From: Comamonas sp. lk
GTDB taxonomy: Bacteria > Pseudomonadota > Gammaproteobacteria > Burkholderiales > Burkholderiaceae_C
Assembly (NCBI RefSeq): GCF_900564145.1
Contig: NZ_UOOB01000001.1
Span: 1,676,754-1,740,753 of the forward strand
Direction of reading: 5' to 3'
DNA length: 64,000 bases
How positions within the stretch are numbered: the stretch's first letter is position 1; every line of letters starts with the position of its first letter. The notes under the pieces are model-generated. The model was not told the origin of the DNA. It searched no databases and saw nothing but the letters and a program-made list of their open reading frames with translations. Positions 2,092 to 47,710 of this stretch are shown here, in pieces. A program made the translations under genes and the position numbers.

Positions 2092-2113
2092 ACATCGTCC
2101 GTTGAGACGATGT
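2092..2113. promoter_or_regulatory. Steroid-regulon operator O1 (perfect palindrome)
   Basis: ACATCGTC-CGTTGA-GACGATGT: 8-bp arms that are perfect reverse complements around a 6-bp spacer. It lies midway between the divergent amidohydrolase and MFS start codons (about 120 and 115 bp away). This is the best-conserved copy of a motif found ten times in the window. Confidence 0.75.
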
Positions 2114-2227
2114 GTCTGACCGCCCCCCATCCCAGGATGTGATGGGCTGCTGCCGGAGACCTCGCAGCTGCAGTGCATGAAATCCGCAGGGCAACACCGC
2201 CCGCACGGGCAAGAAACCAAGAAAACA

Positions 2228-3535
2228 ATGACAGATACCAGTGTGGACCACGGCGCAAGAAAATACGTGCTGCTTTTGTTGACGGCCTTGTCGGCCGTCA
2301 CCTTCATGGACAGGCAGATCCTGGCCGTGCTGCTGCAGCCCATCAAGCTGGAGTTCGGCTTTTCCGATCTGCAGATCGGCTTGATCACCGGCCTGGGTTT
2401 TGCCCTGGCGTTTGGCGTTCTGGGCCTGCCGCTGGGGCGGCTGGCGGACAAGCATGAACGCCGCCGCTTGATTGCCTGGTGCCGGGGGCTGGGCGGCTGT
2501 ATTGCGGCCGCGGGAGCCATGGCCACGGGTGCAGGCGGACTGACGGCCTCCCGCTCGGGCGCGGCCCTGGCCGATGCGGGCGGCGGGGCGGCCTCCATGT
2601 CAATTCTGGCGGATTTGTACGGTCCCTCGGAGCGTTCGCGGGTGATGAGCGTTTTCGGCGTGGGAGCTGCCATGGGTGCCATGCTGGCACTGCTGCTGGG
2701 CCCGCTGTTTGCCGAGTGGTGGGGATGGCGGGTGACCATGGCCATTGTGGGGGCCAGCATTGTGCTGCTGTCCCTGGTGCTGCGCTATACGGTGAACGAG
2801 CCCGTACGCACGCTGACGCACGCCACGGCGGCTGCACAGCATGGCGCGGACGGCAAGCAGAAATCCGCTATTGCCCTGATATGGAATGAGCCTGTAACCC
2901 GCTATCTGATTATGGGTGCTGCTTTCGCTTTGGTAGCAGGTCTGTCTATCGGCGCCTGGAACGTGGCTTTGCTGGCCCGGCGTTTCGACCTGAGTTTGAA
3001 GCAGGCGGGCTGGATTTCTTCGGTGGCGGCCTTGCTGTCGGTGTCGGGCAGTCTGTTCTCCGGCTGGCTGACCGATCGCATGGCTCAGCGCGATGTGCGC
3101 TGGCAGATCCGCATTCCGGTCATAGGAGGGGTGATGGCCGTGATCTTAGGCCTGGCTTATCTGCTGGTGAGCTCCAGCATGTTCGAGCTTTCCATCGCCT
3201 TCATGCTGCTGTATTCCTTTTTCACGCCCTGGTGGGGGCCGGCAACCTATGCCGCTCTCAGCCTGGTGGTGCCTGCACAGCGGCGCGCTACCGCCAGCGC
3301 CATGGTGTTGATGGCCGGTGCGTTGCTGGGCAACGGCGTAGGGCCGATTGCGGCTGGATGGCTCAGTGATGCACTCAACGAGGTCACCGATGGCCAAGGC
3401 CTGCGCTATGCCATGGTCATCATGGTGTGCATGTTGCTGCCCAGCCTCTGGGCTTTTTTCAAGGCGCTGTCCCATTACCCTCGGGCCTATCACGCGGCGC
3501 AATCGGTCGGCCTTAAACCCGCAGCAGTGCGGTGA
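2228..3535 (+). CDS. MFS transporter (spinster-like)
   Basis: 435 aa, about 12 hydrophobic segments. The first membrane segment carries FMDRQILAVLLQPIK and the loop 2-3 region has GLPLGRLADKHERRRLIAW, a clear G-x3-D-R/K-x-RR major-facilitator signature. It resembles the transporter at 6958-8301, which has FIDRQVLSILLEPIK at the same place, so the two are paralogues. Likely role is import or export of a steroid, bile acid or pathway intermediate across the inner membrane (inference from context). The start at 2228 (MTDTSVDHG) fits the family better than an upstream in-frame ATG at 2177, although the Shine-Dalgarno sequence is weak. Its promoter region contains operator O1. Confidence 0.8.
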   Translation: MTDTSVDHGARKYVLLLLTALSAVTFMDRQILAVLLQPIKLEFGFSDLQIGLITGLGFALAFGVLGLPLGRLADKHERRRLIAWCRGLGGCIAAAGAMATGAGGLTASRSGAALADAGGGAASMSILADLYGPSERSRVMSVFGVGAAMGAMLALLLGPLFAEWWGWRVTMAIVGASIVLLSLVLRYTVNEPVRTLTHATAAAQHGADGKQKSAIALIWNEPVTRYLIMGAAFALVAGLSIGAWNVALLARRFDLSLKQAGWISSVAALLSVSGSLFSGWLTDRMAQRDVRWQIRIPVIGGVMAVILGLAYLLVSSSMFELSIAFMLLYSFFTPWWGPATYAALSLVVPAQRRATASAMVLMAGALLGNGVGPIAAGWLSDALNEVTDGQGLRYAMVIMVCMLLPSLWAFFKALSHYPRAYHAAQSVGLKPAAVR

Positions 3536-3545
3536 GCGATCCAGC

Positions 3546-4268
3546 ATGAGTGATGTGATGAGCAGCCATTTGCAGATCACGCAAGCCGCAGTGGAGGCCG
3601 AGCCAGTGTGGAAGATGATTTACCTGGCCAGGCGCAACCCTGAGCTGGCGGCCGCTGACTTCCCCCAGGCCTGGCGTGAACATTCGGCCCTGGGCCGTCA
3701 ATGCCGCAACGTGGCTCAGCGCGTACATGCAGTGGCCCAGTGCTCGCGCGTGCTCGAAGCCCAGGCATCCGCGTTCACACAGGCATATGACGGCGTGAAC
3801 CTGATGGTTCTGGCAGATAGAGAATCCGGTCTGGCCATCTGGAGCGATCCGGACACGCTGGCCGTGATGCGTCCCGATGAACCCCGCGTGTTTGCCGACT
3901 ATGTGCGGAATTTTTCCATGCTTTGCCGTGAGCAGCTCTTGTTCAGCGAGGTGCCGGAGCCGGCGCTGGCGAAGACGGGTGACACGCTGCTGATTGGCTT
4001 TTTGCAACTTCAGCATGAATGGCAGCGCACCGCTGCAGGGCCTGAAGAGCTGCCTGCCGCATGGCTGGCGGGTGGCCTGGCGCATGCGCGGCGCGTGGTG
4101 TGCAATCTGGTGGATGAGCCGCCGCCCGCCGGCTATGGCTATCGCTGCATTGTGGAGTGGTGGTTTGAAGATGTGGCGCAGGCCTTGGCTGCGGCGGAGG
4201 GCGTGAAAAGCGCGGCTTTCGGCGAATGCGTGTTCATGCTGACCCAAGTCACGCATAGCCGCCCCTGA
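3546..4268 (+). CDS. EthD-domain / dimeric alpha-beta barrel protein
   Basis: 240 aa. The sequence opens with KMIYLARRNPELAAADFPQAWREHSALGRQ, the R/K-x(3-5)-FxxxWxxxH pattern of EthD-like dimeric alpha-beta barrel proteins; a second half with similar spacing (residues about 135-235) suggests a tandem or pseudo-dimeric barrel. EthD family members are small accessory proteins or lyase-like enzymes in monooxygenase and polyketide loci; no defined reaction can be assigned. It begins 10 bp after the MFS stop codon, so it is co-transcribed with it. A bidirectional terminator follows at 4295-4328. Confidence 0.65.
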   Translation: MSDVMSSHLQITQAAVEAEPVWKMIYLARRNPELAAADFPQAWREHSALGRQCRNVAQRVHAVAQCSRVLEAQASAFTQAYDGVNLMVLADRESGLAIWSDPDTLAVMRPDEPRVFADYVRNFSMLCREQLLFSEVPEPALAKTGDTLLIGFLQLQHEWQRTAAGPEELPAAWLAGGLAHARRVVCNLVDEPPPAGYGYRCIVEWWFEDVAQALAAAEGVKSAAFGECVFMLTQVTHSRP

Positions 4269-4294
4269 CATCGCTTTCTGCAGTGCTTGAAGAC

Positions 4295-4328
4295 AAACGG
4301 CCCATGAGATTCATGGGCCGTTTTGTTT
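4295..4328. terminator. Bidirectional hairpin terminator
   Basis: AAACGGCCCATGA / TCATGGGCCGTTTT stem with a T-rich right flank and an A-rich left flank. It separates the plus-strand EthD gene from the convergent Rieske oxygenase gene. Confidence 0.85.
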
Positions 4329-4360
4329 GAGGGCAGACCTGGTGTCAGGTCTTTGCATGC

Positions 4361-5473
4361 TTAGGCGGTGACGGACTCTTCGCTGTCTTGCGTGTAGGCC
4401 ACCATGCCCTTGGGCACGTACTTGCCTTCGCATTGCTCCAGATAGTCCTGGGTCTTGGCGCGGGGGTTGTAGAACTGCTTGTACCAGATGCGGGCCTTGA
4501 GGAAGGCGCCGTCGCTGGGGATGAACAGCGGGTTCAGGCAAGGAGCTTTTTGCGACCAGACTTCGAAGTCCTGGGCAAAGGCCAGGCGGCTGGCTTCCTG
4601 GAATTGCTTGGCGGCCACCACATCGGCCTTGCCGGGCAGGCCGCCGTGCGCGGTCTTGACCAGCAGGTTGTGCCAGACCTTGATCTTGCCGTCCTCGATG
4701 GGCGTGTGCATGATCATCATGAAAGAGTTGAACATGCCGCTGACCTTGGAGACCAGAATGCCGGGGCCGTGGTACCAGGTGTCGGTGTGCAGATCGGAGC
4801 TTGCGCCGCCTTCGCCCACCAGCGTGCGGTGGCCGCCGCACTGGCGCTGAATGGCGTTATGGCCCTTGAACTCGTTTTCAAAGCGCGCCACGGTGGAGCC
4901 GTGAATGGGGCTCAAGTGGCCGTAGTCGGCGATGTTGTCCACGACTTCCATGGGGTGCTGGTTCAGCTCGCCCAGATAGTCCCATTCGCCGTTGACATAG
5001 GTCGCGTCATCCCAGTCTTCAAAGCGGGGCAGATCGAATTCAGGCTCGCCGCCTTCGGAGTCAAACCAGACCCAGATCGCGCCGTACTGCTCGACCACCT
5101 TCCAGCTCTTGACGGCCGCAGCCGCAGGGATGGCACCGTCGTGGTAGGGGATGTCATTGCACTTGCCGTCCGCGCCAAAGCGCCAGCCGTGGTAAGGGCA
5201 GCGAATGCCATCGCCTTCCACGTTGCTGCCGCCGCCGTCGATCACCACGTAGCTAGTGGTGTTGGGCGCAGCCAGGTGGGTCTTCATGTGGGGGCAGTAG
5301 GCGTCCAGCAAAATCACCTTGCCGCTTTCGCGGCCACGGTAGAGCGCAAAGTCCTGACCGAAGAAGCGCACAGCCACGGGCTTGTGGGTGTCCAGCGCCT
5401 TGGCTTCTGAAATCATGAACCAGCCGCGTGGGTAGGTGAATTCACCGAGGCGATAGTCCTTCGTGGTTGCCAT
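4361..5473 (-). CDS. KshA-like Rieske oxygenase (3-ketosteroid 9alpha-hydroxylase type)
   Basis: 370 aa terminal oxygenase. The Rieske [2Fe-2S] ligands are C60-x-H62 and C92-x2-H95 (CPYHGWRFG). The mononuclear iron site is N180-x5-H186-x4-H191 in EVVDNIADYGHLSPIHG, the arrangement of KshA-type steroid hydroxylases. Expected reaction: hydroxylation of a 3-ketosteroid using electrons from a reductase such as the kshB product at 52.7 kb. The Rieske loop is long: 29 residues separate the two Cys/His pairs, against about 16 in classical KshA. The start at 5473 (MATTKDYRL) follows GGAGAC; an upstream frame extension lacks these features. Operator O2 lies 60-80 bp upstream. It could act at a position other than C9, for example on bile-acid or side-chain-bearing substrates. 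Confidence 0.8.
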   Translation of the reverse strand: MATTKDYRLGEFTYPRGWFMISEAKALDTHKPVAVRFFGQDFALYRGRESGKVILLDAYCPHMKTHLAAPNTTSYVVIDGGGSNVEGDGIRCPYHGWRFGADGKCNDIPYHDGAIPAAAAVKSWKVVEQYGAIWVWFDSEGGEPEFDLPRFEDWDDATYVNGEWDYLGELNQHPMEVVDNIADYGHLSPIHGSTVARFENEFKGHNAIQRQCGGHRTLVGEGGASSDLHTDTWYHGPGILVSKVSGMFNSFMMIMHTPIEDGKIKVWHNLLVKTAHGGLPGKADVVAAKQFQEASRLAFAQDFEVWSQKAPCLNPLFIPSDGAFLKARIWYKQFYNPRAKTQDYLEQCEGKYVPKGMVAYTQDSEESVTA

Positions 5474-5532
5474 TGCAGAGTCTCCGTGTTTAGTTTTTGA
5501 CGGATTGATCTTCGTGGAGCGGGCAGCGCCAC

Positions 5533-5554
5533 GCATACTCTGTTTGGACGAGTG
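5533..5554 (-). promoter_or_regulatory. Steroid-regulon operator O2 (degenerate)
   Basis: Read on the minus strand: CACTCGTC-CAAACA-GAGTATGC. It keeps the TCGTC half, the CAAAC spacer type and the 6-bp spacing of the other sites, 60 bp upstream of the Rieske oxygenase start. Confidence 0.5.
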
Positions 5555-5619
5555 AATGCATGGCTTTGATCTGCCGCAAACTGCTCAGGGTTTGCCCGTA
5601 ATGCTGTGTGAGTGCGTGC

Positions 5620-6027: not shown

Positions 6028-6097
6028 CTGTTCCTCCTTGTGTTGACGTATTCAGCGGCATGTCTTCAGGGACAACTGCCGTTCCTATCTGGCTTGA

Positions 6098-6961: not shown

Positions 6962-8301
6962 GCGGCCTGCAGCTGCTGCAGACGCTGTTTGTAGGGGGTG
7001 ATGGCCAGGGCGAAGAAGATCACCGTCAGCGCCAGGAATGACACCACGCCCATCAGCGCCCAGCGCAGGCCGTCTGCTCCATGGGTCTTGGCAAAGTAGT
7101 CGGAGAGAATTCCGGTCACCAGCGGGCCCATGCCCACACCCAGCAAGGTCATGAACAGATTGAGCAGGGCGGCGGCCACGCTGCGCTCCGCAGATTTCAC
7201 CATCTGGCTTACGGCGCTATAGGACAGCGTGGCAAACCAGCTGCCGAAAAAGCCGAACAGCATGGCAAACGCCATGGCATAAGGCACTTTGATGCTGCCC
7301 ACCATCCAGAAGTCGGCTTCGGGCCAGAAGAACACGGCAATCCCCGAGGGAATGGCGCACAGGGTTCCCAGTGCGGCCAGGGTCAGCTGCCAGCGGGCGT
7401 CGCGCTGGCTGAGCTTGTCGGACAGCCAGCCGCAGAACATGGCGCCAAACACGGCCCCCAGGCCGCTGGCCAGGCCAAACACCAGGCCGGCGTGAGAAAT
7501 GCTCATGCCGTGAATGCGCATGAAAAAGCTGGGCGCCCACACCGCGTAGCCGTAGCCGGCGATGCCGGCCATGCCGCAGGCAAAGCAGATATAGCGCATG
7601 GGCTTCATGCCCAGCAGGCGCCAGACCTGGCGCGACATGGATTCACGCGGCGCGGCAGGTGCTGCAGCGGCGGCTTTGGCCGCAGGCGCTTCGAATGCCC
7701 CGCGCTTGGGTTCCTTGACCAGCAGGTAGACGAACAGGCTCAGAATCACGCCGGGAATGCCGAAGAACAGAAACACCGAGCGCCAGCCGTAGTACTGGGC
7801 CACCATGCCGCCAAGCACCAGACCCAGCAGCGTGCCCAGGTTGGGCCCCATCATGAACAGGCTGATGGCGAAGGAGCGCTTTTGCGGCGGGTAGGCATCC
7901 GAGACGATGGAAATCGAGGGTGCCATGCCGCCGGCTTCTCCAATGGCCACGCTCATGCGGGCGATCAGCATATGCCAGTACTGGGTGGCAAAGCCGCAGG
8001 CCATGGTGGCCAGACTCCAGATGGCGCAGCACACGGCGACGATGTTGCGGCGGTTGTGGGTGTCGGCCAAACGGCCTACGGGAATACCCAGGGCTGCGTA
8101 AAGCAAACCGAAAGCCAGACCGGTGAGCAAGCCCATCTGTGTGTCCGAAGCGCCAAACTCATGCTTGATGGGCTCCAGCAAAATCGAGAGAACCTGCCGG
8201 TCGATAAATGAAAAAATATAGACCAGGGCCAACAGCGCAAGGCTGAGGTGGGTGCGCCAGTTCACTACAGGTGGGGTGTGGGGTGTGCTCATGCGGGGCA
8301 T
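6958..8301 (-). CDS. MFS transporter (spinster-like)
   Basis: 447 aa with 12 predicted membrane segments. FIDRQVLSILLEPIKHEFG in segment 1 and GIPVGRLADTHNRRN after segment 2 are major-facilitator signatures. It is paralogous to the transporter at 2228-3535. A central Ala-rich linker (AAKAAAAAPAAP) separates the two six-helix halves. Probably moves steroids, bile acids or their degradation products. It heads a minus-strand operon with the SDR and EthD genes and is divergent from the aldehyde dehydrogenase gene with operator O3 between. ATG at 8292 is an alternative start; neither has a strong ribosome binding site. Confidence 0.8.
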   Translation of the reverse strand: MPRMSTPHTPPVVNWRTHLSLALLALVYIFSFIDRQVLSILLEPIKHEFGASDTQMGLLTGLAFGLLYAALGIPVGRLADTHNRRNIVAVCCAIWSLATMACGFATQYWHMLIARMSVAIGEAGGMAPSISIVSDAYPPQKRSFAISLFMMGPNLGTLLGLVLGGMVAQYYGWRSVFLFFGIPGVILSLFVYLLVKEPKRGAFEAPAAKAAAAAPAAPRESMSRQVWRLLGMKPMRYICFACGMAGIAGYGYAVWAPSFFMRIHGMSISHAGLVFGLASGLGAVFGAMFCGWLSDKLSQRDARWQLTLAALGTLCAIPSGIAVFFWPEADFWMVGSIKVPYAMAFAMLFGFFGSWFATLSYSAVSQMVKSAERSVAAALLNLFMTLLGVGMGPLVTGILSDYFAKTHGADGLRWALMGVVSFLALTVIFFALAITPYKQRLQQLQAA

Positions 8302-8324
8302 CGTGCGCTGGCATCAGGGTTACG

Positions 8325-8346
8325 CCATCGTCTTTTTGGACGACGC
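8325..8346. promoter_or_regulatory. Steroid-regulon operator O3
   Basis: CCATCGTC-TTTTTG-GACGACGC; arms pair at all but one core position around the usual 6-bp spacer. It lies between the divergent MFS (25 bp from its start) and aldehyde dehydrogenase genes. Confidence 0.7.
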
Positions 8347-8409
8347 CCAGGTCATGCGGGCACCACACTATGGCATTTCTTCTACTTATTAGATTTCAAG
8401 GGGACAACC

Positions 8410-14997: not shown

Positions 14998-15066
14998 GGC
15001 AAAGACGACTGAATACGAGCTGCTTCAGTTTAAGAATCTCCACACTAAATTCCCCTTGGGGCAAAT

Positions 15067-15088
15067 ACATCGTCCGTTTGAATGTGGT
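15067..15088 (-). promoter_or_regulatory. Steroid-regulon operator O4 (one strong half)
   Basis: Plus strand ACATCGTC-CGTTTG-AATGTGGT: one perfect half site, a weak partner, normal 6-bp spacer. It lies 70 bp from the FadH-like start and 66 bp from hsdA, so it could serve both. Confidence 0.55.
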
Positions 15089-15153
15089 GCTTGCATCTAG
15101 GCTCGGTTTTGATGTGTGCTGGCCTTATTCAATTCGACAAAACAGGAGGAGAC

Positions 15154-17271: not shown

Positions 17272-17327
17272 AAGGCTTACCTCTAGACGTTGACTGGTAT
17301 GCATCGTCGTTTTCCCGAGGTCGCCAA

Positions 17328-17349
17328 ACATCGTCCTTTTGGACGTATC
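17328..17349 (-). promoter_or_regulatory. Steroid-regulon operator O5
   Basis: Plus strand ACATCGTC-CTTTTG-GACGTATC. One perfect half, the second half matches in its first four bases. A further isolated half site (GCATCGTC, 17301-17308) lies closer to the enoyl-CoA hydratase gene. Positioned between divergent units. Confidence 0.62.
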
Positions 17350-17381
17350 TGCTGCAGAGGCTGAAACCTAAATTGTCAGCC

Positions 17382-18173
17382 ATGGACACGAATAACGAAT
17401 TTCAATCTCGCGTGGTGCTGGTAACCGGGGGGACCAAGGGCATAGGCAAGGGCATTGCCCAGGCCTTCCTCAAGGCCGGCGCCACGGTAGTCGTCTGCGG
17501 CCGCCAGCAACCCGAAGACCTGCCGAGCTGCGAAGGCCGCTCGGCCGAGTTCATCGCCTGCGATGTGCGTGAAGCCCAGGCCGTCAAGGAGCTGGTGACC
17601 CAGGTGCATGAACGCCACGGTCGCCTCGATGTGCTGATCAACAACGCAGGCGGTGCGCCCGCCGTGGATGCCGCCACCGTCTCGCCGCGCTTTCACGAAG
17701 GCGTGCTGCGCCTGAATCTTTTCTCCACCCTGCATGCCTCGCAGGCGGCCAATGCCGTGATGCAGCAGCAAGAGAGCGGCGGCGTCATCGTCTGCATAGG
17801 CAGCATCAGCGCGCTGCGCCCCTCGCCGGGTACGGCCGCCTACGGCGCGGCCAAGGCGGCGGTGCTCAGCCTGGTGAGCTCCCTGGCCGTGGAATGGGCA
17901 CCCAAGGTGCGCGTGGTGGCCGTGAGCCCGGGCCTGGTGCGCACCGAGCAGTCGCATCTGCACTTTGGCGATGACGACGGGATTGCCAAAGTGGCGCAAA
18001 CCATTCCCGCCGGCCGCCTGGCCGAACCCGAAGACATCGCTCAGGCCTGCCTGTATGTGGCATCGCCGCGCGCAGCCTATATGAGCGGCACGAATTTGCT
18101 GCTGCACGGCGGCGGCGAGCGTCCTGCCTTCATGGGCGCAGCCAATGCCGAGTCCAACACCAAAACCCACTAA
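17382..18173 (+). CDS. Short-chain dehydrogenase/reductase
   Basis: 263 aa SDR. VTGGTKGIGKGIA is the cofactor loop, LINNAGGAP the NNAG motif and GSISALRPSPGTAAYGAAK (shortened) gives Ser, Tyr and Lys. It is the first gene of an 11-gene plus-strand operon running to 30137. Candidate for oxidation of a ring hydroxyl (for example 12alpha or 17beta) or a hydroxyacyl-CoA. The ATG at 17382 has only a weak ribosome binding site; the frame extends upstream to a TTG at 17373. Confidence 0.75.
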   Translation: MDTNNEFQSRVVLVTGGTKGIGKGIAQAFLKAGATVVVCGRQQPEDLPSCEGRSAEFIACDVREAQAVKELVTQVHERHGRLDVLINNAGGAPAVDAATVSPRFHEGVLRLNLFSTLHASQAANAVMQQQESGGVIVCIGSISALRPSPGTAAYGAAKAAVLSLVSSLAVEWAPKVRVVAVSPGLVRTEQSHLHFGDDDGIAKVAQTIPAGRLAEPEDIAQACLYVASPRAAYMSGTNLLLHGGGERPAFMGAANAESNTKTH

Positions 18174-30290: not shown

Positions 30291-30312
30291 CAGTAGTCTC
30301 AACAGACGATGG
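30291..30312 (+). promoter_or_regulatory. Steroid-regulon operator O6
   Basis: CAGTAGTC-TCAACA-GACGATGG: strong right half, TAGTC left half, 6-bp spacer, 125 bp upstream of the DUF1329 gene. Confidence 0.65.
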
Positions 30313-30436
30313 GAAAAAAGTCTGTAACGGCGAGTATGCGACTGCCGAGAGTGGCGCAGACCTTGTTTTTGGATGGTTCCGGCTAGAAGAGTTTTATCAC
30401 CACCAAAGAACAAGACCTATAACCTAGGAGACATAG

Positions 30437-31816
30437 ATGATGAGTGTAATGACCAAGACTCCGCTGGCTCTGACCGTGGGCTTGATCCTGGCTGGTTCGG
30501 CATTGGCGAAAGTGCCGGCCAGCGAAGCGGAGCAACTGGGCAAGGATTTGACCTGTGTGGGCGCCGTCAAGGCCGCCAACAAAGAGGGCACGATTCCTGA
30601 ATTTACGGGCAAGTGGGCAGGCGCACCGGCCGGTGTGGCCCATGCGCAATCCAGCGGCAAGCATCCGGTGGACATCTATGCCGATGAAAAGCCGCTGTAT
30701 GTGATCACCGCCGAAAACGTGGAGAAGTACGGCGACAAGCTCAGCCCTGGCCAGAAGGCCATGTTCCAGAAGTACCCCAAGACCATGCAGTTGCCGGTGT
30801 ACAAGGGGCACCGCGACTTCCGCTACACCGATGAGGTGTGCGCGGTGGTCAAGAAAAATGCCGTGGAGTCCGAAGTGACCGACAACGGCCTGGGAGTCAA
30901 AGGCCATCTGGGTGCCATCAACTTCCCCATCCCCAAAAGCGGCATAGAAGTTATCTGGAACAACCTGCTGCCCACGCGCGCCTACAACGAAAAAATCATT
31001 CGTGACATGGGCCGCGTGCTGTCCGATGGCTCCGTCACTTACGGCCGGATGGAGAACTGGAATCTGGATATGGTCAACCGGCCAGACAACCTGGGCAAGC
31101 CGGTTGAAGGCCCCATGGCTTACTCCATGACCAAGGGCATGTTGCCAGAGCGCGAAAAAGGCGGTGTGACCAATTCGGTGGAGCCCACCAATTTCGGCAA
31201 GGACAAGCGCCTAGCCTGGAGCTATGACCCAGGTACCCGTCGTGTGCGCCAGGTGCCTGAGTACGGCTTCGACCAGCCCATGACGGGCACCGGCGGCAAG
31301 CTGACCATTGACTCCGACCGTTTGTTCAACGGATCGCCCGAGCGCTACAACTGGAAGCTGATTGGCAAGAAGGAGATGTACATCCCCGCAAATGCCTACA
31401 AGATCCATCAGGCCACGGTGAAGTACGCCGATCTGCTCAAGCAGAACCACGCCAATCCCGACTTCATGCGCTATGAGCTGCGCCGCGTCTGGGCGGTGGA
31501 AGGCACGCTCAAGGACGGCTATCGCCACCTCTATGGCAAGCGTGTGCTGTTTGTGGATGAGGACACCGGTCAGGCCGTCGCTTCCGACATTTATGACGCC
31601 CGTGGCCAGCTGTGGCAGCACGCCCTCATCAACACCTACTACTCCTTCGATATCAAGGCCTGGCATGCCGGCACTTCGTTCTATTACGACCTGAATTCCG
31701 GTTCCTACATGGCCTACAACCTGTTCCAGGAGCGACCACTGGGCCCGATTCTGAACAAGGGTGACCTGACGCCCAATATGTTCACGCCTGAAGCCGCACG
31801 CAACGCAGGCACCTAA
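30437..31816 (+). CDS. DUF1329 family exported protein
   Basis: 459 aa. The N-terminus MTKTPLALTVGLILAGSALA is a signal peptide with probable cleavage after ALA; the mature protein is rich in aromatic residues and matches the DUF1329 pattern (NNLLPTRAYNEK region, GRMENWNLD, YDPGTRRVRQVPEYGFDQP in parts, KKEMYIPANAYK, ELRRVWAVEGTLKDGYRH). DUF1329 proteins resemble periplasmic LolB/MucB-like lipid-binding proteins and almost always sit next to DUF1302 and RND genes in steroid or hydrocarbon degraders. Likely helps move hydrophobic substrate through the periplasm (inference). AGGAGACAT precedes the start; ATG 30440 is equivalent. Confidence 0.8.
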   Translation: MMSVMTKTPLALTVGLILAGSALAKVPASEAEQLGKDLTCVGAVKAANKEGTIPEFTGKWAGAPAGVAHAQSSGKHPVDIYADEKPLYVITAENVEKYGDKLSPGQKAMFQKYPKTMQLPVYKGHRDFRYTDEVCAVVKKNAVESEVTDNGLGVKGHLGAINFPIPKSGIEVIWNNLLPTRAYNEKIIRDMGRVLSDGSVTYGRMENWNLDMVNRPDNLGKPVEGPMAYSMTKGMLPEREKGGVTNSVEPTNFGKDKRLAWSYDPGTRRVRQVPEYGFDQPMTGTGGKLTIDSDRLFNGSPERYNWKLIGKKEMYIPANAYKIHQATVKYADLLKQNHANPDFMRYELRRVWAVEGTLKDGYRHLYGKRVLFVDEDTGQAVASDIYDARGQLWQHALINTYYSFDIKAWHAGTSFYYDLNSGSYMAYNLFQERPLGPILNKGDLTPNMFTPEAARNAGT

Positions 31817-31839
31817 GTTTTATCAAAGAGCGACTCACC

Positions 31840-33348
31840 ATGAAAAACAACATGAAAAAACTCAAGCCCGTTGCCCTGGCGGCACTGCTGACACTGGGCA
31901 TGACGGCTGTTCAGGCCGGGGAAACCATTGAACTCGGCGATGGCCTGAAGTTCGACTGGCGTTTGAATACCAGTTACGGGGTTGGCGTGCGTCTGGAAAG
32001 GCCTTCTGCCGTGCTGAACACCGACGGCAACAAGAACTTCGACAAAGGTTCGCTGACTGCCAACCGTCTGGGTGCGGTGTTTGAAAGCAAGTTGTCCAAG
32101 GGCGATAGCGGCTTTGTTCTCAATGCCAGCACCTTCTACGACGACGTCTATCACGGTCGCAACGACAACCCCGGTCCCACGATCAGCACCGGCGGCCAGT
32201 ACGACCGCTTCACCCCGGCAGCCAAGCGCTACGGCGGTGGTTATTCCCGTCTGCTGGATACCTATGCCTATACCAGCTTCAACATGGGTGAGAGCCGTGC
32301 CACGGTGCGCCTGGGCAAGCAGGTGGTGAACTGGGGCGAGTCCATGTTCTTCGCCAATATCGCTTCGGCCCAAGGCCCCAGCGACGGTGCCAAAGCAGCA
32401 TCGCCAGGTGCCGAGGTGAAGGAAATCCTGCTGCCTGAAGATCAGATTTCCGCGTCGCTGGAGTTGACGCCCAATCTGTCCTTGCTGGCCCACTATCAAT
32501 TCGGCTTCCACGAAACACTGTTGCCTGCCGTGGGCATGTACACCAGCACCAGCAATCTGCTGGGCCCAGGCGCCAATTGCGGATTCCGCGCGGGTGCGGC
32601 TTGCTTTCTGAATCGCGGCAGCGATATTCGCCCCAGCAGCACCGGACAGTGGGGCATTGGTAGCCGCTATCGCGTAACCAGCGAAACCGAAGTCGGCGTG
32701 TATTACCTGGACTACAACGATCGTTCGCCCAACATCGTCGTGAATGGCAATGGCACCTATCAGGTGCGCTACTTCGACGACATCAAGATGCTGGGCACCA
32801 CGGTCAGCACCACCTTCGGCAAGTTCTCTGCTTTTGGTGAAGCCAGCTATCGCAAGGGCGCTGCAGTGTTGGTGGGCGCGGCCTCCACGGCTGTGCGCGG
32901 CAACGTGGTGCAGGGCAATATGGGTGGTATCTACAACATCGGCCGTACGGCATTTGCCGATGACATGTCGCTGGCTGCGGAAATTTCCGGCTCTCGCGTG
33001 TTGAGCGTGGAGCAGGGCAGCGTCGACAACCTGGCCTTCAAGACCCGTAACTCGCTGGTTGCGGCAACCACCTTGACTCTGGGCTACCCCGGCATCTTCG
33101 AGGGCTGGGATATGACCGTGCCCATCAGCTACCAGTCGCAGCTGCGCGGCCGTTCCCTGGTCGGCACCTTCGGTGGTGGTCAAAGCGACAGCCGCCTGAG
33201 CATTGGTGCGACTTTTGTTCGCAAGAGCAATTTCTCCATCAACGTCGCCTACATCAACTACCTGGGCAATCCTTCGACCGATCCTCTGCGTGCTCGCACG
33301 TTGGCGGACCGCGATCAGCTGTCCATGACCATGAAGTACTCGTTCTGA
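31840..33348 (+). CDS. DUF1302 outer-membrane beta-barrel protein
   Basis: 502 aa. Signal peptide of about 26 residues (LALAALLTLGMTAVQA-like, cut before GETIELGDG). The mature chain shows alternating hydrophobic strands and ends in KYSF, an aromatic C-terminus suited to BAM-dependent outer-membrane insertion. RLGKQVVNWGESMFFANI and DQLSMTMKYSF are typical DUF1302 landmarks. Likely an outer-membrane channel for steroids or other hydrophobic compounds. It lies 23 bp after the DUF1329 gene. A hairpin follows at 33371-33394. Confidence 0.8.
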   Translation: MKNNMKKLKPVALAALLTLGMTAVQAGETIELGDGLKFDWRLNTSYGVGVRLERPSAVLNTDGNKNFDKGSLTANRLGAVFESKLSKGDSGFVLNASTFYDDVYHGRNDNPGPTISTGGQYDRFTPAAKRYGGGYSRLLDTYAYTSFNMGESRATVRLGKQVVNWGESMFFANIASAQGPSDGAKAASPGAEVKEILLPEDQISASLELTPNLSLLAHYQFGFHETLLPAVGMYTSTSNLLGPGANCGFRAGAACFLNRGSDIRPSSTGQWGIGSRYRVTSETEVGVYYLDYNDRSPNIVVNGNGTYQVRYFDDIKMLGTTVSTTFGKFSAFGEASYRKGAAVLVGAASTAVRGNVVQGNMGGIYNIGRTAFADDMSLAAEISGSRVLSVEQGSVDNLAFKTRNSLVAATTLTLGYPGIFEGWDMTVPISYQSQLRGRSLVGTFGGGQSDSRLSIGATFVRKSNFSINVAYINYLGNPSTDPLRARTLADRDQLSMTMKYSF

Positions 33349-38751: not shown

Positions 38752-38835
38752 GTTGTCTCCTTCATCAGTCTTTTACGGGCCCATGCGCGAGCCCTCAATA
38801 CCTAGGCGGGAGATTGTTGTTTCGAGGGTTTTGGA

Positions 38836-38857
38836 ACATCGTCCGAATGGACGTTTG
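38836..38857 (-). promoter_or_regulatory. Steroid-regulon operator O7
   Basis: Plus strand ACATCGTC-CGAATG-GACGTTTG. Read on the minus strand the strong half faces the Ycf48-RND operon, 85 bp from its start. Confidence 0.65.
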
Positions 38858-38890: not shown

Positions 38891-38912
38891 TCTTAGTCTG
38901 CACAGACGATGG
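38891..38912 (+). promoter_or_regulatory. Steroid-regulon operator O8
   Basis: TCTTAGTC-TGCACA-GACGATGG; strong half faces the aldolase gene at 38969. It forms a back-to-back pair with O7, 55 bp apart centre to centre. Confidence 0.65.
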
Positions 38913-38968
38913 TTGGCAGCCGCTTCGTTCTCACAATGAAGTCATACTTGCTTAGAAAAGGAAGACAT

Positions 38969-40183: not shown

Positions 40184-40186
40184 GAA

Positions 40187-41128: not shown

Positions 41129-41148
41129 TTGGCGATAAAAGGACTGCC

Positions 41149-42327: not shown

Positions 42328-42450
42328 GCGTTAGTAGCTACTGATTTGATAGTTTTCTTGCGTTTCACACCTGTATCGAGCACAGCTGCTTTGCGCGCCG
42401 TTGCTGCGCTGCTGGAGCGCCATCCTGGGGTTGCGCCCTAGGTAAATACC

Positions 42451-42472
42451 TGCTCATCAAAACGGACGATGT
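42451..42472 (+). promoter_or_regulatory. Steroid-regulon operator O9
   Basis: TGCTCATC-AAAACG-GACGATGT; one perfect half plus a weaker left half, 98 bp upstream of the small gene at 42570 and pointing toward it. Confidence 0.6.
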
Positions 42473-42569
42473 CGGGCTTTGGGTGCTGGCCATACTGCAG
42501 GCAAAGAGGGCTTGAGAACGCCAGTCGCTTCTCAAGCCTGCACGGCGCAGCACAGCACAGGAGACGACG

Positions 42570-42773: not shown

Positions 42774-42830
42774 GGTTTCGGACAGGTCGCCGGGCCGGTC
42801 CCGACTCTGCTTTGCCTCGCACCTGGCCAT

Positions 42831-42871
42831 AAAAAAAGGTTCGGAGGCCGCCCCAAGCAGCCTCCGAACCT
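42831..42871 (-). terminator. Rho-independent terminator of the tesA2-D-E-F-G operon
   Basis: On the minus strand AGGTTCGGAGGC pairs with GCCTCCGAACCT and is followed by seven T. It lies 41 bp after tesG. Confidence 0.9.
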
Positions 42872-42911
42872 CTGAATACCCAATGGCAATGGAGAACTCG
42901 AGAAAAACGGC

Positions 42912-43949: not shown

Positions 43950-43963
43950 GTGTTTCTCCTAGA

Positions 43964-44887
43964 TCAGGCTGCAACAGCGGCTTCAGCGGGCTCAAAGCGG
44001 CCAGCCAGGATTTCTTCGGCAAACATCTCGGCCGTGCGCGCGGCGGCGGCGGTCATGATGTCCAGATTGCCGGCGTACTTGGGCAGGTAGTCGCCCAGAC
44101 CTTCGACTTCCATGTAGATGGAGACGCGGTTGCCGTCGATCACAGGGCCGTTGACCAGCTTGTAGCCGGGTACGTACTTCTGCACTTCCTTGATCATGGC
44201 GTGCACCGAAGCCTCGATTTCAGCGGGCTTGGGGGTGTCCACGGTCAAGCAGTGAATGGTGTCGCGCATGATCAGTGGCGGCTCGGCCGGGTTGATCACG
44301 ATGATGGCCTTGCCCTTTTGGGCGCCGCCAATTTTTTCGACAGCGCCGGCGGTGGTGCGGGTGAATTCATCAATGTTCTTGCGGGTGCCGGGGCCGACCG
44401 ATTTGCTGGAGACGGTGGCCACGATTTCACCGTAGCTCACGGCTTGCACGCGCGAGACCGCTGCCACCATGGGGATGGTGGCCTGGCCGCCGCAGGTGAC
44501 CATGTTCACGTTCATGGCCTTTTCGGCAACCTTCTCGGCCAAGTTCACGCTGGGCACGCAGTAAGGGCCAATGGCAGCAGGGGTCAGGTCGATCATCAGC
44601 ACGCCCAGCTCGTTGAGCTTGCGGCTGTTTTCGGCATGGACATAGGCGCTGGTGGCATCGAAGGCGATCTGAATGCCGTCTTCCTTGACGAAGGGCAGCA
44701 GGCCGTCCACACCTTCGGCCGTGGTCTTGATGCCCATTTCGCGGGCACGCTTCAAGCCATCGGATTCGGGGTCGATACCGACCATCCACACAGGCTCCAG
44801 AATGGAAGAGCGCTGCAGTTTCATGAGCAGATCGGTGCCGATATTGCCGGGACCGATCAGTGCGCACTTGATCTTTTTTTGCGTCAT
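43964..44887 (-). CDS. tesF: Acylating aldehyde dehydrogenase (propanal/acetaldehyde)
   Basis: 307 aa. [10 protein letters not shown] binds NAD; Cys132 ([11 protein letters not shown]) is at the same number as the catalytic Cys of DmpF. It converts propanal (or acetaldehyde) from the TesG reaction to propionyl-CoA with NAD+ and CoA. Length and motif order are normal. Start at ATG 44887 after AAGACACC, with a weak ribosome binding site; 6 bp separate it from tesE, so it is translated from the shared message. Confidence 0.93.
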
Positions 44888-44893
44888 GGTGTC

Positions 44894-45688
44894 TTACTCA
44901 GTGAATTGAATGGAACAGCTGCCCATGCCGGCTATGACCATGTCGAAGCGGTCACCGGCAGCGGCAGGCACGAGAGGGGCGAGGGAGCCGGAAAGAATCA
45001 CTTCGCCGGCCTTGAAAGGGATGCCGAAAGCGCCCAGGGTGTTGGCCAGCCAGGCCACGGCTTCGGCAGGATGGCCTTGCACGGCGCTGCCCAGGCCAGC
45101 GCCTGCGGGCTGGCCGTTCTTGTTCATCTGCATGGCGGCAGCGGCCAGATCCAGCGAGGCCGGATCGGTGTGTTGCTTGCCGATGACGAAGACACCGCAG
45201 GAGGCGTTGTCGGCCACGGTGTCCTGAATCTTGATCTTCCAGTCGTTGATGCGCGAATCGACGATTTCGAAGCAAGGTGCGACCCATTCGGTAGCGGCCA
45301 GCACGTCTTCGCGGGTCACGCCCGGGCCTTGCAGGTCGGTCTTGAGCATGAAGGCAATTTCGCCTTCGGCACGTGGCTGGATCAGGCCGGATGCTTTGAG
45401 CGAGACGGCAGCGCCGTCTTCGAACTGCATGCTGTCGGTCAGAAAGCCGAAGTCGGGCTGGAACACGCCCAGCATGTCTTGCACGGGCTTGGAGGTCACA
45501 CCTATCTTTTTGCCAATCACGCGCTCGCCCGAGGCCTCGCGCAGGCGCAGCATGTGCAGGGAGATGTGATAGGCGTCTTCCACCGTCATTTCAGGGTGGC
45601 TGTCGGTCAGTGGTGCCAGGGTTTTGGCGGTGCGCAGCGCGTCGTAAAGGCGCTGGCCCTGGGTTTGGATGAATTCTTTGTTACTCAT
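44894..45688 (-). CDS. tesE: 2-Hydroxyhexa-2,4-dienoate hydratase
   Basis: 264 aa, MhpD/fumarylacetoacetase-like fold. GKKIGVTSKPVQDMLGV, AEGEIAFML and ASCGVFVIG are family blocks; the metal-binding acidic residues lie in the AEGEIAF block. In the steroid pathway it hydrates 2-hydroxyhexa-2,4-dienoate to 4-hydroxy-2-oxohexanoate. The ATG at 45688 (MSNKEFIQTQG) was chosen over a longer open frame because that extension runs into tesD and has no family similarity. It starts 5 bp after the tesD stop. Confidence 0.92.
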   Translation of the reverse strand: MSNKEFIQTQGQRLYDALRTAKTLAPLTDSHPEMTVEDAYHISLHMLRLREASGERVIGKKIGVTSKPVQDMLGVFQPDFGFLTDSMQFEDGAAVSLKASGLIQPRAEGEIAFMLKTDLQGPGVTREDVLAATEWVAPCFEIVDSRINDWKIKIQDTVADNASCGVFVIGKQHTDPASLDLAAAAMQMNKNGQPAGAGLGSAVQGHPAEAVAWLANTLGAFGIPFKAGEVILSGSLAPLVPAAAGDRFDMVIAGMGSCSIQFTE

Positions 45689-45693
45689 GGGAA

Positions 45694-46533
45694 TCAGCCG
45701 TTTTGCATGAAGTCGATGCAGCTGCGGTTGAACATCTCGCGGTGTTCCACCTGCACCCAGTGGCCGCACTGGTTGACCAGGATCACGCGGCAGTTCTTGA
45801 TGCCCTTGGCCAGCTTGTCGGCGCCACCCACGGGGTTGAAGGCATCCTGTATGCCCCAGAAGCCCAGCACATTGCACTTCAGCTCGGGCAGTTGCTCGGT
45901 CATGTTCGGCACCACCAGCACGGAGCGTGCTGCCTGGGTCTGGGTCTCGGCAATCGGGGCGCGCTCGTTGATGATTTCGTCGGTCAGCAGCGATTGATCC
46001 ACCAGCTGCATGGACATCACGGCACGCATGGCTTCCTTGCCCGCCTTGCCCGACTTGTAGATGTTGAACATATTGGCAATGCCGGGCATGGCCAGATAGG
46101 TGTCCAGATCTTCCACGCCGCCGGGGGCCATCAGGATCAGGCTTTTGACGTCTTCGGGGTGCTTCAATGCATAACCCAGCGCTACGGCGCCGCCCAGCGA
46201 ATTGCCCAGCAGGGTGATGTTCTTGAGACCCAGCTTGTCAACCAGGCCCTTGATGCCGGCAATGAAGAAGTCCAGGTGGTATTGCTTGGGTTCTTCCGTC
46301 TTGGAGGACAGACCGTAGCCCAGCAGATCCGGCACGATGGAGCGAAAGCCGGCCTTGGCAAACTCGGGGTAGTTGCCCTTGAAGTTGCTGTAGCCGCTGG
46401 CACCACCGCCTGCGCCGTGCAGGAAGATCACGGGATCGCCCGTACCTTGCTCGTGGTAGTGCACCCGCTGGGCTTGGCCCGCGATTTCTCCGATGTCTAC
46501 GTATTGGCCTTCGGGAATGGAAAAGTGGCTCAT
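45694..46533 (-). CDS. tesD: 4,5-9,10-Diseco steroid hydrolase
   Basis: 279 aa alpha/beta hydrolase of the BphD/HsaD family. Ser112 in LGNSLGGAV is the nucleophile at BphD numbering; FLHGAGGG forms the oxyanion loop; QCGHWVQVEH holds the His. It hydrolyses the meta-cleavage product (DSHA) to 2-hydroxyhexa-2,4-dienoate and the C/D-ring acid 9,17-dioxo-hexanorandrostanoate. ATG 46533. It is followed by tesE and preceded by tesA2 on the same strand. Confidence 0.92.
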   Translation of the reverse strand: MSHFSIPEGQYVDIGEIAGQAQRVHYHEQGTGDPVIFLHGAGGGASGYSNFKGNYPEFAKAGFRSIVPDLLGYGLSSKTEEPKQYHLDFFIAGIKGLVDKLGLKNITLLGNSLGGAVALGYALKHPEDVKSLILMAPGGVEDLDTYLAMPGIANMFNIYKSGKAGKEAMRAVMSMQLVDQSLLTDEIINERAPIAETQTQAARSVLVVPNMTEQLPELKCNVLGFWGIQDAFNPVGGADKLAKGIKNCRVILVNQCGHWVQVEHREMFNRSCIDFMQNG

Positions 46534-46606
46534 CAGTGTTCTTTATGGCTTGAGTTGAACGGCGAAGGCTTGTCTCCAGCCTTCGGATGGGGAACGGGGT
46601 AGAACT

Positions 46607-47584
46607 TCAGGCCTTGGCTTGCCAGAGCTTGGGCAGGCCGGGGTCGGTGGCGGCAATGGCTTTTTTCAGCAAATTGCGCAGGGTCACGGCTTCCATCTCG
46701 CCCAGGCGGGAGACGATGTCGGTTTCCACGGCCTTGGCGGCGGCCAGCACGTGAAGAATGGCTTCGTTGCCCTGGGCCGTCAGTTGCAGTGCCCGGGCAT
46801 GCTCGGCGCTTTCCTCCACCCAGCCCTTGCGGATCAGGGACTGCAAGGCAACCGCACCGATATCGATGCCGGTATAGGCCATGTGCGCAGCGATCTCTGC
46901 AGGCGACAGCGGCTGCTGGATGCTGAGCAGGGACAGCACGTAGAAATCGGCATCCGTCATGCCGAACTCGTTCATGGGCTTGCGTATGCCGCTCAGAAAT
47001 TGGAAGTGGGCGCGACCCATCAGATAGCCGATCAGATTCTCTGAATAAGCGGTGTCGGTATCGGCGGCAGGTTCGGTGGCAATGGCCTGCGACTTGGGCG
47101 AGGCCAGGGCGTAGCCGCCGGTGACATACAGCAGCGGTGGCGTGGGGTTGGCGTCGTAGTCCGTCACCTCGCCGACAAAAATGATGTGGTCGCCGCCGTC
47201 GTACTGGAAAGCGGTCTTGCAGCGAAAGCGGGCGCTGCAGTCCTGCAGCAGCGGTGCATGCTCTTGCTCGGAATCCAGCGGCAGGCCGGAGAATTTGTCT
47301 TCGCCGGCGCGGGCAAAGCGGTTGGACAGGGCTTCCTGCTCGTTCGAGAGGATGTGCACATTCCAGGTTGCGGCGTTCTGGAACACCGGCAGGCTGCGTG
47401 CATTCTTGGCCAGGCTCCACAGCACCATGGGTGGCTCAAGCGATACCGAGTTGAAGCTGTTGGCCGTGATTCCCACAGGCTCTCCGCCTTCGGCGCGCGT
47501 GGTGACGATGGTGACCCCGGTGCCGAACATGCCCAGAGCGCGGCGAAAGTCCTTGGGATCGAATGTGGCAGCAGTACTTTGCAT
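46607..47584 (-). CDS. tesA2: Flavin reductase of 3-HSA 4-hydroxylase, with MarR-like C-terminal domain
   Basis: 325 aa. Residues about 1-165 are a flavin reductase domain (ALGMFGTGVTIVTTR, GITANSFNSVSLEPPMVLWSL in parts, GDHIIFVGEV). Residues about 185-315 form a MarR-like helical/winged-helix region (YVLSLLSIQQPLSPAEIAAHMAYTG, ALQSLIRKGWVEE). The same fusion occurs in the reductase C1 of p-hydroxyphenylacetate hydroxylase of Acinetobacter, where the MarR-like part senses substrate. TesA2 should supply reduced flavin to TesA1 for 4-hydroxylation of 3-hydroxy-9,10-secoandrostatriene-9,17-dione. The start at 47584 follows GGAGACATTCACC. Confidence 0.88.
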   Translation of the reverse strand: MQSTAATFDPKDFRRALGMFGTGVTIVTTRAEGGEPVGITANSFNSVSLEPPMVLWSLAKNARSLPVFQNAATWNVHILSNEQEALSNRFARAGEDKFSGLPLDSEQEHAPLLQDCSARFRCKTAFQYDGGDHIIFVGEVTDYDANPTPPLLYVTGGYALASPKSQAIATEPAADTDTAYSENLIGYLMGRAHFQFLSGIRKPMNEFGMTDADFYVLSLLSIQQPLSPAEIAAHMAYTGIDIGAVALQSLIRKGWVEESAEHARALQLTAQGNEAILHVLAAAKAVETDIVSRLGEMEAVTLRNLLKKAIAATDPGLPKLWQAKA

Positions 47585-47688
47585 GGTGAATGTCTCCTTG
47601 ATGCAAGAGTGCTTGTGGCGGCCCGCTTTTGAATCCTTCACATGGACTAGCCGGGTGGATTCGGACTCGGTGATTTCCCGGGATGCAC

Positions 47689-47710
47689 CGTTAGTCTGAT
47701 CGGACGATGA
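47689..47710 (+). promoter_or_regulatory. Steroid-regulon operator O10
   Basis: CGTTAGTC-TGATCG-GACGATGA between divergent tesA2 (105 bp) and tesA1 (99 bp). The strong half faces tesA1. A single shared site could coordinate both monooxygenase components. Confidence 0.68.

What the first reader, a model, noticed from the sequence alone, without database searches (positions are those of the whole stretch)
2092..47710. Ten-copy 22-bp palindromic operator defines a steroid regulon across the window
Ten sites share the form ACATCGTC-N6-GACGATGT: 2092-2113 (perfect), 5533-5554, 8325-8346, 15067-15088, 17328-17349, 30291-30312, 38836-38857, 38891-38912, 42451-42472 and 47689-47710. All lie between genes, all have a 6-bp spacer (often CAAAxG in one orientation) and at least one well-conserved half. 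They precede nearly all the steroid transcription units and are absent from the housekeeping part. I know of no published description of this motif, but could not search.
Basis: partly seen in the sequence, partly recalled or inferred. Interest (0 to 1): 0.85.

Follow-up and report, generated by a model that had tools for sequence, protein, structure and literature searches.

The report
Shared switch for bacterial steroid-eating genes
A short DNA signal sits at a fixed distance in front of the predicted start points of most steroid-breakdown operons in this Comamonas bacterium, and is most likely the landing site of the known steroid-response activator TesR/TeiR.

Summary
The ten sites are real. 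The symmetric consensus given is loose (3 of 10 sites within 3 mismatches), but a refined, directional motif, TMGTCY-N4-RGACGATG, separates all ten from every other place in the window and from 400 kb of background in leave-one-out tests. Outside the window it also marks tesB, an SDR gene, the gene run that ends in tesR, and an acyl-CoA synthetase gene. New here: the motif is in phase with a sigma70-type -10. Over 55 sites from five genomes the only other columns above 0.3 bit are three bases of a NANNAT hexamer, which puts the operator centre at about -42.5, the lux-box (class II activator) position. Operator plus -10 also leads to bhsd, 1.7 Mb away. Operators are 93.5% identical between two Comamonas genomes, flanks 39-53%. 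Presence tracks TesR: 10 of 10 family genomes with a TesR ortholog have 6-15 hits, 2 of 240 others have 6 or more. Best explanation: TesR/TeiR, a LuxR-type activator, binds directly; three operators may serve divergent promoter pairs. Binding is inferred, not shown.

The parts
2092..2138 (+). TesR-box 1 (2092-2113, both arms perfect); -10 CAGGAT at 2133-2138 in phase for the MFS transporter gene (ATG 2228). Toward the amidohydrolase (-, ATG 1972), the higher-scoring strand of the matrix, no in-phase -10
5508..5554 (-). TesR-box 2 (5533-5554) with -10 GAAGAT (5513-5508), upstream of a Rieske-oxygenase-like (kshA-like) gene (ATG 5473)
8300..8371 (.). TesR-box 3 (8325-8346) with in-phase -10s on both sides: CACGAT toward MFS/SDR (-) and CACTAT toward aldehyde dehydrogenase (+, ATG 8410)
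15042..15113 (.). TesR-box 4 (15067-15088) between old-yellow-enzyme-like genes (-, TAGTGT) and hsdA, 3alpha-HSD (+, TTTGAT, ATG 15154); two of three key bases on each side
17303..17374 (.). TesR-box 5 (17328-17349) between the enoyl-CoA hydratase gene (-, GACGAT, three of three) and an SDR-led gene run (+, TAAATT, two of three, ATG 17382)
30291..30337 (+). TesR-box 6 (30291-30312) with -10 GAGTAT, upstream of the DUF1329/DUF1302 genes (ATG 30437)
38811..38857 (-). TesR-box 7 (38836-38857) facing the Ycf48-like and RND-exporter-like genes (GTG 38751); in-phase hexamer CAATCT has two of three key bases, or AACAAT 2 bp closer
38891..38937 (+). TesR-box 8 (38891-38912) with -10 CACAAT, upstream of the thiolase-led gene run (ATG 38969)
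42451..42497 (+). TesR-box 9 (42451-42472), upstream of a 67-aa ORF (ATG 42570); no in-phase -10, candidate CATACT 1 bp closer
47606..47652 (-). TesR-box 11 (47631-47652, GGCTAGTCCATGTGAAGGATTC), degenerate but conserved, with CACTCT at the usual distance (two of three key bases; read from the sequence); faces the hsaB-hsaD-tesEFG genes (ATG 47584).
47689..47735 (+). TesR-box 10 (47689-47710) with -10 GAGCAT, upstream of hsaA (ATG about 47809) and the kstD, FAD-enzyme, reductase and acyl-CoA ligase genes after it

Best explanation
The sites are operators of TesR (TeiR), the LuxR-type positive regulator of steroid degradation, whose gene lies 17 kb upstream of the window (G000:C1:1658945-1660195). 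In the presence of steroid a TesR dimer binds the imperfect dyad TMGTCY-N4-RGACGATG (18 bp). The nearly invariant half GACGATG lies at about -39 to -33, where a -35 element would be, and the dyad centre at about -42.5 from the start site, so that TesR recruits sigma70 RNA polymerase to a promoter that has only a -10 (NANNAT): a class II, lux-box-like arrangement. At three places (8325, 15067, 17328) hexamers in phase on both sides suggest that one operator drives two divergent promoters. A site upstream of the gene run that ends in tesR suggests positive autoregulation. Shown here by computation: the sites, their conservation, the in-phase -10, the genes downstream and the co-occurrence with TesR. 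Inferred: direct TesR binding, activation, the start sites and the operons. Not addressed: what TesR senses, and how.
For: (1) Leave-one-out: 10 of 10 sites beat all other places in the window and in 400 kb of background. A matrix from 29 sites of three non-Comamonas genomes (themselves found with the window matrix) also puts the ten on top: 7 of 10 at 22.9 bits or more, the other three at 13.5-14.8, next place 13.3, background maximum 13.7. (2) Outside the window the matrix finds tesB (26.2 bits), the SDR-MaoC-thiolase-tesR gene run (20.2), an SDR gene (18.0) and an acyl-CoA synthetase gene (18.4). (3) -10 phase: over 55 sites (17 bits or more) A+20 (40/55), A+23 (33/55) and T+24 (39/55) are the only columns above 0.3 bit outside the operator from -30 to +57; C leans at +30 (31/55). 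Of 15 own-genome sites read from the stronger strand, 10 have all three bases and 13 at least two; no other offset from 0 to 59 has two or more sites with all three; of 45 background hits 0 have all three and 9 have two or more; in other genomes 22 of 41 have all three (at most 3 at any other offset). (4) Footprint over 14 site pairs, ungapped: operator 93.5%, core 99%, upstream 53%, operator-to-(-10) spacer 49%, downstream 39% identity. (5) Operator plus -10 without mismatch: 11 places genome-wide, 9 in the steroid region (these had helped to define the pattern), 1 upstream of bhsd (475.6 bits to 1hxh), 1 upstream of an SDR gene; a bhsd-locus box with AACAAT is also found in two other Comamonas in front of the gene before bhsd and in a third directly upstream of bhsd (L226). 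(6) Co-occurrence: 10 of 10 genomes with TesR at 60% identity or more have 6 or more hits, against 2 of 240 (the cut of 6 was set after seeing the counts). (7) The protein is a TeiR ortholog (91% over 94% of the query to Q6URL0), has a GerE HTH over cut-off, and its HTH is nearly invariant in 33 chosen homologs (60-91% identity). (8) A review says tesR/teiR is needed for induction of 3,17beta-HSD, 3alpha-HSD, ketosteroid dehydrogenases and most identified steroid genes (passages of PMC6678751). (9) Published RNA-seq Table 4 (PMC10637631, section 19 read): first genes that I match by annotation and order to the sites rise by log2 4.2-8.4 after 3 h of testosterone.
Against: No binding, footprint or start-site data are at hand. 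TeiR has been reported as a polar membrane kinase acting through phosphorylation (passages of reviews), which would make it indirect. Regulator and motif follow each other along phylogeny, so co-occurrence is not independent evidence. G104 (8 hits) and G175 (6 hits) have the pattern without a detected TesR. Of six loci with distant or weak TesR homologs that I scanned whole, two (L082 19.5, L087 18.0 bits) have a hit away from hsaA, without an all-three in-phase hexamer. TesR homologs of 25-34% identity lack the motif at hsaA, but for one weak hit. The hsaB-facing site is degenerate; 42451 has no in-phase -10 and 38836 an imperfect one; at 2092 the stronger strand has none, so the amidohydrolase is not explained. 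The bhsd operator scores only 10.0 bits here, within the range of background hits, and 12 of 14 other Comamonas loci have no site of 10 bits or more within 220 bp of bhsd itself. In Table 4 two induced genes (GM003882, 3883) have no site that I can assign.
Confidence: 0.8

Rival explanations
1. The sites are operators of a steroid-relieved repressor (such as the PhaR-, LuxR- or TetR-named repressors reported for bhsd), which blocks the promoters by binding at the -35 region.
For: Several repressors of bhsd are reported in C. testosteroni (passages of PMC6678751). A dyad is the usual form of a TetR-type operator (recalled).
Against: A fixed distance to the -10 and no conserved -35 outside the operator are what an activator needs; a repressor needs no fixed phase. 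The motif is directional. No TetR or LysR family headed the match lists of the window ORFs scanned (51 of the 118 ORFs), and of 13 GerE matches in the genome only the TesR one lies in or near the cluster. TetR and LysR genes were not searched genome-wide.
Confidence: 0.07
2. The sites are bound by an activator other than TesR (for example a LysR-type HsdR-like protein or an unlinked LuxR-type protein); TesR acts upstream through a signalling cascade, as the kinase reports say.
For: Reports of TeiR as a kinase. G104 and G175 carry 8 and 6 pattern hits without a detected TesR. The genome has 12 other GerE matches.
Against: 10 of 10 TesR genomes against 2 of 240 others. TesR has a nearly invariant LuxR-type HTH and Pfam names no kinase domain in it. 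The -42.5 position is that of LuxR-type activators (recalled). The dyad is not the ATC-N9-GAT of some LysR sites (recalled); here it is ATC-N12-GAT.
Confidence: 0.1
3. A by-product of gene starts or chance: GACGATG-like strings around ATG codons and shared ancestry of intergenic DNA.
For: Longest-ORF starts fall inside five sites.
Against: The likely starts lie downstream; operators are 93.5% identical while the flanks are at 39-53%; background holds nothing comparable.
Confidence: 0.01
4. An RNA-level element in the 5' leaders.
For: It lies upstream of genes and is a dyad.
Against: It is upstream of the predicted -10 and start site, so it would not be transcribed from that promoter; three sites have hexamers in phase on both sides.
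Confidence: 0.02

Closest known systems
lux box and other LuxR-type class II activator sites (LuxR, TraR; recalled, not compared here)
   Same: A dyad of about 20 bp centred near -42.5, overlapping the -35 position, with sigma70 -10; the activator has a GerE-type HTH.
   Different: Different sequence (as recalled); TesR has no autoinducer-binding domain match (Pfam); the targets are a dispersed steroid regulon; the downstream half is nearly invariant and the upstream half relaxed.
TesR/TeiR of Comamonas testosteroni (TA441, ATCC 11996)
   Same: Same protein (91% to Q6URL0), encoded next to a thiolase gene; known positive regulator of steroid genes.
   Different: In the passages I read no operator is given and a kinase cascade is proposed; here a direct operator and promoter architecture are predicted.
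KstR/KstR2 operators of Actinobacteria (passages; motifs recalled)
   Same: One motif repeated before steroid-degradation genes.
   Different: TetR-type repressors; here an activator arrangement and a LuxR-type protein.
EdcR operator of Caenibius tardaugens (TnnCnnTACnAnTnGTAnnGnnA; passages)
   Same: Palindrome at steroid (estrogen) degradation promoters of a proteobacterium.
   Different: TetR-type repressor site that overlaps the -10; different sequence.

Membership tests
LuxR/FixJ-type (GerE HTH) regulator: TesR | C-terminal GerE HTH over Pfam cut-off | tested here: met
   27.7 bits against cut-off 23.5, residues 353-406; HTH nearly invariant in 33 chosen homologs
LuxR/FixJ-type (GerE HTH) regulator: TesR | Orthology to experimentally studied TeiR/TesR | tested here: met
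   91% identity over 94% of the query to TeiR Q6URL0
Quorum-sensing LuxR | Autoinducer-binding domain | tested here: not met
   At E 0.001 Pfam lists only GerE and HTH_30
NarL/FixJ response regulator | Receiver domain | tested here: not met
   At E 0.001 Pfam lists no receiver domain
Class II activator site (lux-box-like) | Dyad centred at -41.5 or -42.5 with sigma70 -10 and no separate -35 | tested here: met
   NANNAT at offset 19-24, centre at -42.5 by sequence, in most but not all sites; start sites not mapped
Class II activator site (lux-box-like) | Protein binding and dependence of transcription on the site | not testable with these tools
   needs gel shift/footprint and promoter fusions
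LysR-type operator | ATC-N9-GAT or T-N11-A type core (recalled) | tested here: not met
   The spacing read from the sequences is ATC-N12-GAT; only the first form was checked
KstR/TetR-type operator | Known KstR/KstR2 motif, or a TetR gene in the cluster | tested here: inconclusive
   No TetR family headed the lists of the 51 window ORFs scanned; TetR genes were not searched genome-wide; no motif comparison was run

The most novel reading that the evidence does not exclude
One LuxR-type protein, TesR, directly and alone switches on the whole dispersed steroid-degradation regulon (rings A-D, side chain, transport, hsdA, bhsd, its own operon) of Comamonas and of many other beta- and some gammaproteobacteria through a single class II box at -42.5, with several boxes firing two divergent promoters at once; the kinase-cascade model of TeiR is then wrong or secondary.
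Probability: 0.65. Interest if true: 0.7.

Novelty: new member of a known kind. Interest (0 to 1): 0.6.

Why it matters
How proteobacteria coordinate about 90 steroid genes (92 annotated genes in the induced cluster of one strain) has stayed unclear since TesR/TeiR was described in 2004; the review passages I read describe a kinase cascade and several repressors, and one calls the mechanisms largely unknown for bile-acid degraders. A defined operator with a fixed promoter geometry makes the question directly testable, predicts the regulon in unstudied genomes, points to candidate steroid genes outside the cluster (an SDR at C1:2.43 Mb, a gene with weak similarity to the dehydratase BaiE at C1:2.65 Mb), and offers a part for steroid biosensors.

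Tried and rejected
The symmetric consensus as a definition: rejected, since it has 112 places per strand genome-wide at 3 mismatches or fewer (control 25). TCGTCYNNNNRGACGA with 1 mismatch: 56 places per strand, while the read-backwards control has 166, so that pattern alone has no genome-wide specificity. The perfect dyad at C1:563366 (24.7 bits) lies inside a 474-aa ORF and is taken as chance. Hits at C1:715731 and C1:810737 (12.3 and 14.3 bits) and three hits on C2 look like chance; I did not annotate their surroundings. Weak hits at L154:7159 and L154:11165 lie beside repeated ORFs that look like a mobile element and have no all-three in-phase hexamer: rejected. LysR-type and RNA-element readings: rejected as above. 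Three loci without a site within 600 bp of hsaA (L059, L060, L072) have sites elsewhere in the locus. Divergent TesR homologs may use another motif; not pursued. A TesR fold prediction was wanted but the machine was busy at all six attempts, so nothing is said about its sensor fold.
Full report
WHAT WAS CHECKED. The window is part of a Comamonas-like genome (HsaA 92% identical to C. testosteroni ATCC 11996; G000:C1:1676754-1740753) and holds a steroid-degradation cluster: HsaA, HsaB and HsaD homologs, 4-hydroxy-2-oxovalerate aldolase, a ketosteroid dehydrogenase homolog, acyl-CoA ligases, a Rieske-type oxygenase, hsdA. The ten sites are at the stated places, but the symmetric consensus fits loosely: 3 of 10 sites within 3 mismatches and 112 places per strand in the genome, control 25.

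THE REAL MOTIF. Oriented by the better half, the ten sites give (T)(A/C)GTC(C/T)-N4-(A/G)GACGATG. With a weight matrix that leaves out the tested site, all ten (16.9-23.8 bits) exceed every other place in the window (12.2-13.9; places within 25 bp of a listed site not counted) and everything in 20 control stretches of 20 kb from the same genome (0 of 400 kb). A matrix from 29 sites in three non-Comamonas genomes also puts the ten on top, but three of them (42451, 15067, 5533: 14.8, 13.8, 13.5) only at the level of the best background hit (13.7). Those 29 sites had themselves been found with the window matrix.

OUTSIDE THE WINDOW. The window-trained matrix finds sites upstream of a tesB homolog (extradiol dioxygenase, C1:1640597, 26.2), an SDR gene (C1:1637005, 18.0), an SDR-MaoC-thiolase-LuxR gene run (C1:1656226, 20.2) and an acyl-CoA synthetase gene (C1:1675154, 18.4). 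The control stretches have no hit of 16 bits or more and four of 14 or more. The pattern GTCYNNNNRGACGATG has 16 distinct places in the genome: 10 in the steroid region (7 in the window, 3 outside) and 6 elsewhere; the read-backwards control has 1.

PROMOTER PHASE. I aligned 55 sites (17 bits or more; 14 from the own genome, 41 from G128, G004, G168, G142) on the operator. Outside the 22-mer, from -30 to +57, only three columns exceed 0.3 bit: A at +20 (40/55), A at +23 (33/55), T at +24 (39/55), the key bases of a -10 hexamer; +30/+31 lean to C (31/55) and A (22/55), as expected for -1/+1. The dyad centre is then at -42.5. Of 15 own-genome sites read from the stronger strand, 10 have all three bases and 13 at least two; no other offset has two or more sites with all three. 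Background hits of the matrix: 0 of 45 have all three, 9 of 45 have two or more. In the other genomes 22 of 41 have all three and 27 at least two, against at most 3 with all three at any other offset. Exceptions: 2092 is in phase only on its lower-scoring strand; 42451 has CATACT one base closer; 38836 has two of three. At 8325, 15067 and 17328 both directions carry an in-phase hexamer with at least two of the three bases. Orthologous sites in related genomes are not independent of each other.

CONSERVATION. Upstream of hsaA, 54 of 80 loci from other genomes have a site of 16 bits or more within 600 bp (two loci had almost no upstream DNA and two less than 600 bp). An eleventh site, 47631-47652, facing hsaB, has a conserved left half, a degenerate right half and an in-phase hexamer; a similar element is found in 27 of 39 loci.

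DISTANT TARGETS. Operator plus -10 with no mismatch gives 11 places in the genome: 6 in the window and 3 in the flanking steroid region (all nine had helped to define the pattern), and 2 elsewhere. With one mismatch allowed there are 49, against 12 for the control, so most one-mismatch hits may be chance. The two distant ones lie upstream of SDR genes: one is the 3beta/17beta-hydroxysteroid dehydrogenase bhsd (475.6 bits to 1hxh); the other is an unassigned SDR with an operator of 21.8 bits. At bhsd the operator scores only 10.0 with the matrix, so the -10 and conservation carry the case. In G128 and G302 a like box (13.0 and 16.2 bits) with AACAAT lies in front of the gene that precedes bhsd; in this genome that gene is missing there and the box is directly upstream of bhsd. 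Of 14 other Comamonas loci in which I placed the bhsd start, 12 have no site of 10 bits or more within 220 bp of bhsd, L226 has the box with AACAAT and L228 another site; only G128 and G302 were looked at further upstream, and L229 was not resolved. A one-mismatch hit at C1:2649119 (operator 20.7 bits) precedes a gene with weak similarity to bile-acid 7alpha-dehydratase BaiE (E 8e-9).

THE REGULATOR. Of 13 GerE (LuxR-type HTH) matches in the genome, the only one in or near the cluster is at C1:1660001-1660162, in a protein 91% identical to TeiR of C. testosteroni; its HTH is almost invariant in 33 homologs that I chose from the 120 listed. In 250 genomes of the family, 23 have a TesR match at E 1e-20; the ten at 60% identity or more have 6-15 hits of TMGTCYNNNNRGACGATG (palindromic sites count twice); of the other 240 (13 of them with a match of 25-40% identity), two have 6 or more, mean 0.87. 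The cut of 6 was set after seeing the counts. The two exceptions, G104 and G175, have no TesR match at E 1e-5. Among 46 of the 80 hsaA genomes (the rest not searched), 28 of 31 with a TesR homolog at 36% or more have a site of 16 bits or more within 600 bp of hsaA, and the other three have sites elsewhere in the locus; of 15 with a TesR homolog under 35% or none, one has a weak hit there. Of six of those 15 scanned over the whole locus, two have a hit elsewhere (L082 19.5, L087 18.0 bits). This follows phylogeny and is not independent evidence.

EXPRESSION. In a published transcriptome of C. testosteroni JLU460ET (PMC10637631; passages, and section 19 with Table 4 read) first genes that I match by annotation and order to the sites rise by log2 4.2 (amidohydrolase) to 8.4 after 3 h of testosterone. 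Genes of the same table that change by 1.4 or less or show a dash at 3 h are GM003878-3881, 3888-3896, 3914-3915 and 3938; by order most of them have no room in this window. Rows that do not fit neatly: GM003856 (2.57) and GM003905 (1.94) are intermediate, and GM003882 and 3883 (4.40, 3.34) are induced without a site that I can assign. The matching is mine, from names and order, not from sequence.

LITERATURE. Reviews state that TesR/TeiR is required for induction of most steroid genes, including 3,17beta-HSD and 3alpha-HSD, and describe it as a polar membrane kinase (passages of PMC6678751, PMC8399759, PMC8700777); a 2026 paper calls tesR the positive regulator (passages of PMC13101464). Seven searches of the open-access library listed no paper whose title or abstract start gives an operator for it, and the passages I read give none; I did not read the listed papers in full. 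The one TeiR primary paper that I asked for is not held, so an operator may be in print there or elsewhere.

CONCLUSION. The finding is real and stronger than stated. The most likely mechanism is direct class II activation by TesR at -42.5. Binding, activation and start sites are inferred.

Noticed in passing
17374-17384 and 8292-8301: Predicted start sites at 17381 and 8293 fall within a base of the ATG of the SDR gene (17382) and the MFS gene (8292), suggesting leaderless transcripts.
   Followed up: no
47631-47652: Conserved degenerate site facing hsaB, with intact left half TAGTCC and altered right half in 27 of 39 loci; perhaps tuned.
   Followed up: partly
L192:8958-9797 and L139:9348-9884: An SDR gene and a gene with weak similarity to BaiE, far from the cluster, carry operator and in-phase -10; candidate new steroid genes.
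   Followed up: partly
G104, G175, G122, G234 (unnamed family genomes): Fully or nearly symmetric sites such as TCGTCCGATCGGACGATG in genomes with no TesR match at E 1e-5; perhaps another regulator uses a similar box.
   Followed up: no
G128:C1:1781092 and G128:C1:2925855; TesR paralog at G128:C1:1676726: Two identical sites TAGTCCCAAAGGACGATG away from the cluster, in a genome with a second TesR-like protein (60% identity).
   Followed up: no
L193:8955-9719 against L239:8714-11029: The gene that sits between the operator and bhsd in G128 is missing there in this genome, so the operator lies directly upstream of bhsd.
   Followed up: partly
30437-33348: DUF1329 and DUF1302 genes directly downstream of a site; their function in steroid handling is unknown to me.
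   Followed up: no
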